A stretch of 64,000 nt of DNA from Verrucomicrobiota bacterium (GTDB taxonomy: Bacteria; Verrucomicrobiota; Verrucomicrobiia; Limisphaerales; JADLHS01): contig JAKQDQ010000090.1 in the NCBI GenBank assembly GCA_029573725.1, positions 62,001 through 126,000 of the forward strand, given 5' to 3'. The notes beneath the pieces are model-generated. The model ran no database searches. It worked only from the letters and a program-made list of their open reading frames with translations, and was not told the origin of the DNA. The translations under genes and the position numbers were made by a program. Shown here in pieces: positions 30,358-31,195 of the stretch; position 1 is the stretch's first letter, and each line of letters opens with the position of its first letter.

Positions 30358-30486
30358 GTAGGGACGGCGCGCTGCGCCGTCAGCGCCGCGTCCAGCGGCG
30401 CAACGATTCGCACGGGACGCGGGGGATGACGGATGTGTTCCGCCCGCTGCTGCGCGGGCGGGGACAGCGCAGCGCGCTGTCCCTAC
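30358..30486. repeat. REPIN-like element A (129 bp)
   Basis: Outer GTAGGGAC...GTCCCTAC; left hairpin GACGGCGC-GCT-GCGCCGTC; right hairpin GGACAGCGC/GCGCTGTCC. Confidence 0.8.
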
Positions 30487-31028
30487 CACGAAAATTGCGA
30501 CCGCTCGCCATCCGCGAAATAAACGAACGGCCACTCTTCGGGGCGAGCGACAAATTGTTTCCGAACCGGATTTTCCAAAATGTAATCGGCCTTTTGCCGC
30601 CGGCTCTCGTCGTGCCGCAAGCGATGTTCAAAAAAATCGCGTTGCCAGCCGATGCCGATTTCTTTTGCCGTCCATTCCTTCCATTTGCTGATGACGCCTT
30701 GGATGGTTTTGTTGGAAGGCGGAAAGGAAATCAGCGCGTGCAAATGATCCGGCATCAGCAGAAACAGATGCGGCCACCACAAGAATCTTTCCTGCCGATG
30801 GCGGACAGTCTCGAACAAACGAACGGAAATTTCCGGCGCGGCGAGTTGATTGCCATTTCCCAGTTCCGGGTAGGGACGCTGCGCTGCGGCGTCCGGACAG
30901 CGCAGCGCGCTGTCCCTACCATAGTCAAATCGTTCCCGGCAGTTGATGGTGATGAAATAGATTTCGCGCTGCGGGTCAACCCACAATGGAACGTCGTGTG
31001 GCAATGTCTTTCTTTCGGGAACGTCCAT
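30483..31028 (-). CDS. REP-associated tyrosine transposase (RAYT, Y1/HUH transposase)
   Basis: LFLLMPDHLHALISFPPS (HUH = HLH) and KADYILENPVRKQFV (catalytic Tyr motif YIxxNP); flanked by GTAG-headed palindromes. Confidence 0.88.
   Translation of the reverse strand: MDVPERKTLPHDVPLWVDPQREIYFITINCRERFDYGRDSALRCPDAAAQRPYPELGNGNQLAAPEISVRLFETVRHRQERFLWWPHLFLLMPDHLHALISFPPSNKTIQGVISKWKEWTAKEIGIGWQRDFFEHRLRHDESRRQKADYILENPVRKQFVARPEEWPFVYFADGERSQFSW
30870..30919. repeat. REPIN-like element B (50 bp) inside the RAYT coding sequence
   Basis: GTAGGGACGCTGCGCTGCGGCGTCCGGACAGCGCAGCGCGCTGTCCCTAC. Confidence 0.85.
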
Positions 31029-31082
31029 GACGGGAAGCTATGCGATGCGTCACATGACGACAAAGCAAATTGGGCGAATTGG

Positions 31083-31195
31083 GTAGGGACGCCGCGCGGC
31101 GCTGTCCGCGCCCGTAAAGCGGGCGCTAGATTCATCCTTCGACACAAAATTCCGGCGGCTTTACCGCCGGGGACATCGCAGCGCGATGTCCCTAC
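31083..31195. repeat. REPIN-like element C (113 bp)
   Basis: Outer GTAGGGAC...GTCCCTAC; terminal GGACATCGC-GCT-GCGATGTCC hairpin (minus strand) plus two inner hairpins. Confidence 0.8.

What the first reader, a model, noticed from the sequence alone, without database searches (positions are those of the whole stretch)
30358..31195. Family of three GTAG-headed palindrome pairs (REPINs) with compensatory stem changes
Elements A, B and C each start GTAGGGAC and end GTCCCTAC. The six half-elements read GTAG + GGACGGCGC-GCT-GCGCCGTC, GGACAGCGC-GCT-GCGCTGTCC (twice), GGACGCTGC-GCT-GCGGCGTCC, GGACGCCGC-GCG-GCGCTGTCC and GGACATCGC-GCT-GCGATGTCC. Stem positions change in a paired manner (GG/CC, AG/CT, GC/GC, AT/AT) while the GTAG head and mostly GCT loop stay fixed. 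Established knowledge: REPs recognised by RAYTs carry a GTAG/GGAG head 5' of a hairpin, and inverted pairs are REPINs. The exact family here looks undescribed to me.
Basis: partly seen in the sequence, partly recalled or inferred. Interest (0 to 1): 0.85.

Follow-up and report, generated by a model that had tools for sequence, protein, structure and literature searches.

The report
REPIN elements invading their own transposase
Three small DNA hairpin pairs surround and interrupt the gene for the enzyme (a RAYT transposase) that probably moves such hairpins; one sits in frame inside that gene, and similar insertions recur at the same spot in related bacteria, so a known kind of mobile hairpin is shown colonising its own enzyme and several DNA-repair genes.

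Summary
In detail: six GTAG-headed half-elements form three inverted pairs at 30357-30487, 30869-30920 and 31082-31196, and the motif occurs nowhere else in the window. They are REPINs of a RAYT (REP-associated tyrosine transposase) encoded on the minus strand at 31028-30483. The cassette lies between mod and res of a type III restriction system; in the nearest relative these two are 17 nt apart.

In-frame inserts recur at the same protein loop in about twelve related RAYTs, probably from several events (a single origin is not rejected, AU p = 0.068).

The own genome has only one more REPIN, in frame inside a ParE/GyrB-type topoisomerase gene. Across the order the motif is dispersed (59 of 322 genomes, reversed control zero) and associated with this RAYT lineage (odds ratio 11, not corrected for phylogeny).

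GTAG REPs, intragenic REPs and GTAG-supplied stop codons are already published, including in Verrucomicrobia. New here, as far as I could search, is recurrent in-frame invasion of the cognate RAYT gene: a new variant of a known kind. Mobilisation by this RAYT is inferred, not shown.

The parts
30357..30487 (.). REPIN A (131 bp): two inverted GTAG hairpins with an about 79-nt spacer; its right (minus-strand) half abuts the 3' end of the RAYT gene and supplies its TAG stop codon (30485-30483)
   Evidence: DNA fold z -7.6
30483..31028 (-). RAYT gene, 181 codons; HUH (PDHLH), catalytic Tyr (YILENPVR) and GTAG-reading motif WQRDFFEHRLR present; 24 residues longer than the usual 157 aa because of the REPIN B insert
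   Evidence: NCBIfam NF047646 80.7 bits >= cut-off 80; PDB 4er8 profile E 5e-10, Foldseek E 3.7e-5; dN/dS about 0.07-0.21 against L061-L068
30869..30920 (.). REPIN B (52 bp, spacerless) inside the RAYT CDS, read in frame as Y-GRDSALRCPDAAAQRPY-P in the loop between beta-1 and alpha-1
   Evidence: loop pLDDT < 50
31082..31196 (.). REPIN C (115 bp): inverted GTAG hairpins with an about 63-nt spacer that holds two smaller hairpins (GTAAAGC/GCTTTAC); lies between the RAYT start and res
   Evidence: DNA fold z -7.45
28702..30342 (+). type III restriction-modification methyltransferase (Mod), host-locus flank
   Evidence: PF01555; PADLOC MTase_III 569 bits
31237..33750 (+). type III restriction endonuclease subunit (Res), host-locus flank
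   Evidence: PF04851; PADLOC REase_III 586 bits

Best explanation
The locus is a REPtron: a single-copy RAYT gene flanked by its own REPINs that came, as a cassette or with its restriction system, to lie between mod and res. SHOWN: the anatomy; the RAYT family; flanking REPs of the same or a co-diverged type at related RAYTs; mod and res 17 nt apart without a RAYT in a relative; purifying selection on the RAYT; in-frame REPIN B inside the RAYT; recurrence of in-frame inserts at the same RAYT loop and in loops of other genes. INFERRED: the RAYT recognises the single-stranded GTAG hairpin, cuts near it with its HUH tyrosine, and copies or moves REPINs; binding and cutting have been shown in vitro for the E. 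coli, Stenotrophomonas and Marinomonas enzymes (PMC8266576), not for this one. New copies that fall in coding sequence survive only where the added peptide fits a disordered loop and the frame stays open. The spacerless 52-bp REPIN can be read open in two frames, giving GRDxALRyPDxAAyRPY or VGxARCxxRxSQRDVPT. One such survivor sits in the RAYT gene itself, most likely as a tolerated passenger.
For: RAYT identity. GTAG-contact residues W, Q, E, H, R (positions 94, 95, 100, 101, 104 in E. coli, PMC6006769) fall in register in WQRDFFEHRLR (my alignment by eye). Flanking REPs at related RAYTs, with type shifting together with the RAYT clade. GTAG supplies the stop codon in 11 of 80 related RAYTs. 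Association with the RAYT lineage: Fisher p 2.7e-7. Stem covariation. Mod-res gap 17 nt in L032, and a different gene, GxxExxY-like, in the gap in L033. In-frame inserts: P0001-P0012 and P0111; a second RAYT loop in P0003 and L070. Other in-frame REPINs: ParE-type topoisomerase, hemL, mutY, mfd, recN and a GNAT gene.
Against: No movement has been observed and no biochemistry exists for this enzyme. The own genome holds only four REPINs, so recent activity there is not evident. The RAYT scores barely above the NCBIfam cut-off and had no Pfam hit at 1e-3, which fits interruption by the insert. The association with RAYT presence is not corrected for phylogeny; many carriers belong to one genus-level group (g47). 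The mod/res comparison is at 57-61% protein identity, so no base-precise empty site was obtained.
Confidence: 0.82

Rival explanations
1. The REPIN in the RAYT gene is a selected regulatory part, not a passenger: its hairpin in the mRNA, or its cleavage as single-stranded DNA by the RAYT itself, limits RAYT expression (autoregulation), and the site is kept for that reason.
For: Recurrent in-frame inserts at one loop in separated RAYT clades (at least 3 changes forced by starred branches). The encoded residues keep the DNA pairing rule (x-y = S-C, I-C, G-R, A-R, V-R), so hairpins stay intact while the sequence changes.
Against: About 25 close genome RAYTs flanked by the same REPs lack it. P0013 lacks it inside the insert-bearing clade. 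P0006, P0007 and P0009 carry degraded inserts. The same elements sit in unrelated genes (hemL, mfd, mutY), which fits plain tolerance of loops.
Confidence: 0.1
2. All RAYT inserts descend from one ancestral REPIN insertion that was later overwritten by gene conversion with other REPINs and lost in many lineages, so there is no hot spot.
For: AU test does not reject one clade (p = 0.068). All inserts share flanks of the form YG...PY...GNQLA, and P0008 and P0111 have nearly identical inserts although the core tree separates them.
Against: The free tree needs 5 changes, with at least 3 forced by starred branches; the likelihood drops by 36 units when the carriers are held together. The RAYT alignment is short (157 columns).
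Confidence: 0.3
3. The hairpins are maintained mainly as RNA or DNA signals of the restriction system (terminators or mRNA stabilisers between mod, RAYT and res), not as mobile units.
For: A lies 15 nt after mod's stop and C 40 nt before res. REPs are hypothesised to act in transcription termination and mRNA stability (PMC3733652).
Against: The closest mod-res pairs lack them. The same REPs flank RAYTs at many other loci, and one REPIN is inside the RAYT gene.
Confidence: 0.05

Closest known systems
GTAG REP super-family and REPtrons (Di Nocera et al. 2013, PMC3733652), including Opitutus terrae (Verrucomicrobia)
   Same: GTAG foot, short stem, head-to-head dimers, RAYT nearby, GTAG supplying stop codons, intragenic copies with many in DNA repair genes, alternative complementary stem residues
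   Different: Here a REPIN lies in frame inside the RAYT gene itself, and RAYT inserts recur at one loop; that is not mentioned in the text I could read (the supplement listing target ORFs was not available). Exact consensus GGTAGGGACnnnGCGCTGCnnnGTCC not compared.
Stenotrophomonas maltophilia REPtron Sm (PMC8266576)
   Same: 23-nt REP: GTAG, perfect stem, three-base GCT loop; the architecture closest to this 25-nt unit (9-bp stem, GCT loop)
   Different: Group 3 enzyme; stem sequence and stem length differ; host phylum differs
REPINs of Pseudomonas fluorescens (Bertels and Rainey 2011, PMC3116915)
   Same: Inverted REP doublets linked to a RAYT
   Different: Here spacing falls in discrete classes (50, 92-96, 125-143 between heads), and the spacerless class is the one found in frame within genes
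Rickettsia palindromic elements (RPE)
   Same: Palindromes inserted in frame into protein genes, adding a short peptide
   Different: RPE-4/6 belong to the CGTC class with no dedicated transposase (PMC3733652); here the likely mobiliser is known and is itself a target

Membership tests
REPIN / GTAG REP | GTAG tetranucleotide at the foot of a short hairpin | tested here: met
   six of six halves; 26-nt half folds as a 9-bp stem with 3-nt loop
REPIN / GTAG REP | two REPs in inverted orientation | tested here: met
   A, B, C in the window; 29 head-to-head pairs in 19 loci
REPIN / GTAG REP | dispersed population in the genome | tested here: inconclusive
   own genome: only four REPINs; relatives up to 57 exact halves (G131)
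REPIN / GTAG REP | linked to a RAYT lineage | tested here: met
RAYT (TnpAREP) | sequence above the family cut-off | tested here: met
   NF047646 80.7 >= 80 with insert, 92.7 for the uninterrupted P0013
RAYT (TnpAREP) | HUH motif, one catalytic tyrosine, GTAG-contact residues | tested here: met
   H-x-H, Y and WQ..FE.R.R columns invariant or nearly so; alignment to 4er8
RAYT (TnpAREP) | cleaves and rejoins its REP as single-stranded DNA | not testable with these tools
   needs an in-vitro assay
IS200/IS605 insertion sequence | member of the IS200/IS605 transposase family, usually multi-copy | tested here: not met
   one copy of this RAYT in the genome, second hit only 28% identical; NF033573 16.6 against cut-off 55

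The most novel reading that the evidence does not exclude
The RAYT gene has a preferred in-frame landing loop for its own REPINs, and the resident REPIN makes the gene a substrate of its own product: a built-in brake on REPIN spread that is gained, refreshed and lost repeatedly.
Probability: 0.1. Interest if true: 0.75.

Novelty: new variant of a known kind. Interest (0 to 1): 0.47.

Why it matters
How RAYTs and REPINs persist, and whether REPINs are really moved by RAYTs, is open. Here is a compact REPtron with few REPINs, RAYT alleles with and without an in-frame REPIN, and a set of loops in conserved genes (a ParE/GyrB-type topoisomerase, Mfd, MutY, RecN, HemL) that collect them. Such allele pairs allow a direct test of whether a REPIN inside the gene changes RAYT activity or expression, and insertions in close relatives could show the target and the junctions.

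Tried and rejected
Rfam: one sub-threshold microRNA match only (23.5 against 90), rejected. Pfam gave no hit for the RAYT at 1e-3, resolved with NCBIfam. The 'RAYT' match at G001:C487 turned out to be a REPIN-encoded peptide inside hemL, not a transposase. Synteny around mpl in 11 family members did not give an empty site for the restriction locus. Base-precise junctions of in-frame insertions could not be fixed, because the loops differ between relatives and carry other repeats. A first pairing test was biased because halves had been selected for pairing; it was redone on an unselected set. The AlphaFold model is of middling confidence (pLDDT 64.6) and is used only for the order of strands and the disordered insert.

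Full report
WHAT IS THERE. The six GTAGGGAC halves occur only at 30358-31195 in the window. They form three inverted pairs: A 30357-30487 (131 bp), B 30869-30920 (52 bp, no spacer) and C 31082-31196 (115 bp). The conserved unit is GGTAGGGAC-nnn-GC-GCT-GC-nnn-GTCC; the base before GTAG was G in 74 of 74 halves from 19 loci. Head-to-head spacing falls mostly into classes: 50, 92-96 and 125-143.

THE GENE BETWEEN THEM. The minus-strand ORF 31028-30483 is a RAYT: closest named relatives are called 'REP element-mobilizing transposase RayT', NCBIfam NF047646 scores 80.7 against a cut-off of 80, and the only solved relative at E <= 0.001, both by profile and by fold, is 4er8, the E. coli RAYT bound to a REP hairpin. 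dN/dS against genome relatives L061-L068 is 0.07-0.21, so the protein is under purifying selection. The stretch WQRDFFEHRLR is in register with the E. coli residues that read GTAG (PMC6006769; alignment by eye). The GTAG of element A gives the stop codon TGG-TAG; the same holds in 11 of 80 related RAYTs, a known habit of GTAG REPs (PMC3733652).

THE INSERT. Uninterrupted relatives are 157 aa and read INCRERFSNQLA (P0013); the window protein reads INCRERF-DYGRDSALRCPDAAAQRPYPELGNG-NQLA. The extra 24 residues hold REPIN B in frame. In the model the segment is a loop, mostly with pLDDT under 50, between beta-1 and alpha-1. Eleven further metagenomic RAYTs (P0002-P0012) have an insert at the same site, three of them degraded (P0006, P0007, P0009), and so has P0111, whose N-terminus does not align. 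The encoded residues follow the DNA pairing: in RDxALRyP and PDxAAyRPY, x-y is S-C, I-C, G-R, A-R or V-R. On the RAYT tree, built without the insert columns, carriers fall in separate places: P0001-4, 6, 7, 9 (with P0013 lacking it in the same starred clade); P0005 and P0010-12; P0008; P0111. The tree needs 5 changes, at least 3 of them forced by starred branches. A single origin costs 36 log units but is not rejected by the AU test (p 0.068). A second loop, after SFP, carries a REP or REPIN in P0003 and in the genome contig L070. About 25 other close genome RAYTs have no insert.

THE PLACE. The flanking genes are a type III Mod and Res. In the nearest relative without a RAYT (L032) mod and res are 17 nt apart; in L033 a GxxExxY-like gene fills the gap. 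So the RAYT with its REPINs is an addition between mod and res. Close RAYT relatives are in other families of the order, not in the own genus or family, and GC is lower over 29-34 kb than around it. Both fit horizontal arrival, inferred.

THE POPULATION. In the own genome a search with up to 3 mismatches finds only one other REPIN. It too is spacerless and in frame, inside a ParE/GyrB-type topoisomerase gene; relatives lack this insert, except that G001 (L189) has a divergent GTAG pair in the same loop. In congener G001 the spacerless form lies in frame in hemL, mutY and mfd, and the motif also lies in frame in recN (G004) and a GNAT gene (G034). These gene names are from my reading of the sequences. 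A decayed copy at the same hemL position in G004 shows that some are old and inherited. The same loops carry other palindromic or repeat-like inserts in other relatives. Across the order, 59 of 322 genomes have the exact motif and none has a reversed-control hit. Genomes with this RAYT lineage have it in 15 of 23 cases, others in 44 of 299 (odds ratio 10.9, p 2.7e-7; not corrected for phylogeny). RAYTs of other clades are flanked by changed REPs such as GTAGCGTTTGTCGCGCTGCGACAAAC and GTGGAACTCCTCGCGCTGCGAGGAGT: hairpin and enzyme change together.

HOW IT LIKELY WORKS. By analogy with three tested REPtrons (PMC8266576), the RAYT binds the GTAG hairpin as single-stranded DNA and cuts near it at CT or CA. 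That its action spreads REPINs is inferred there and here. Copies in coding sequence are kept where the frame stays open and the peptide falls in a loop. REPIN B is most simply such a tolerated copy.

WHAT IS KNOWN AND WHAT IS NEW. GTAG REPs, REPtrons, intragenic REPs in repair genes and GTAG stop codons are known, also from Verrucomicrobia. I found no description of REPINs within the coding sequence of the cognate RAYT in the papers searched, but only open-access papers are held and the supplement that lists target ORFs was not readable. I therefore call it a new variant of a known kind.

Noticed in passing
L166:1501-1552 (G000:C71:514964-515015): The only other REPIN of the family in this genome lies in frame in a ParE/GyrB-type topoisomerase subunit gene, read in the alternative open frame (VGSARCADRTSQRDVPT).
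   Followed up: yes
L172, L179, L189 (topoisomerase loop); L234, L235, L238-L243 (HemL loop); L246-L251, L253, L255 (Mfd loop); L257-L266 (MutY loop): The same loops of conserved proteins carry other palindromic or repeat-like in-frame inserts in many of these Limisphaerales, for example GGTGVPPV...NGQDARAT; they look like recurrent landing loops for several repeat families.
   Followed up: partly
L213, L216, L218, L231: REPINs of this family in frame in hemL, mutY, mfd and recN of congeners; three of the four genes serve DNA repair. The first three are spacerless by direct reading.
   Followed up: partly
L233 (G004 hemL): A decayed REPIN (GTAG changed to GCAG) at the same hemL position as the intact one in G001, that is, an inherited and eroding intragenic REPIN.
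   Followed up: partly
L033:3112-3714: Another type III mod-res pair has a GxxExxY-like gene flanked by CACGAAG repeats between mod and res, as if this junction were a tolerated insertion place.
   Followed up: no
31107-31171: The spacer of REPIN C holds two smaller hairpins with GTAAAGC/GCTTTAC loops; the same motif (CCCGTAAAGCGGG) follows the REP inside the L070 RAYT.
   Followed up: no
L166:2412-3023: A second, distant Y1-type transposase-like gene lies next to the topoisomerase gene in the own genome.
   Followed up: no
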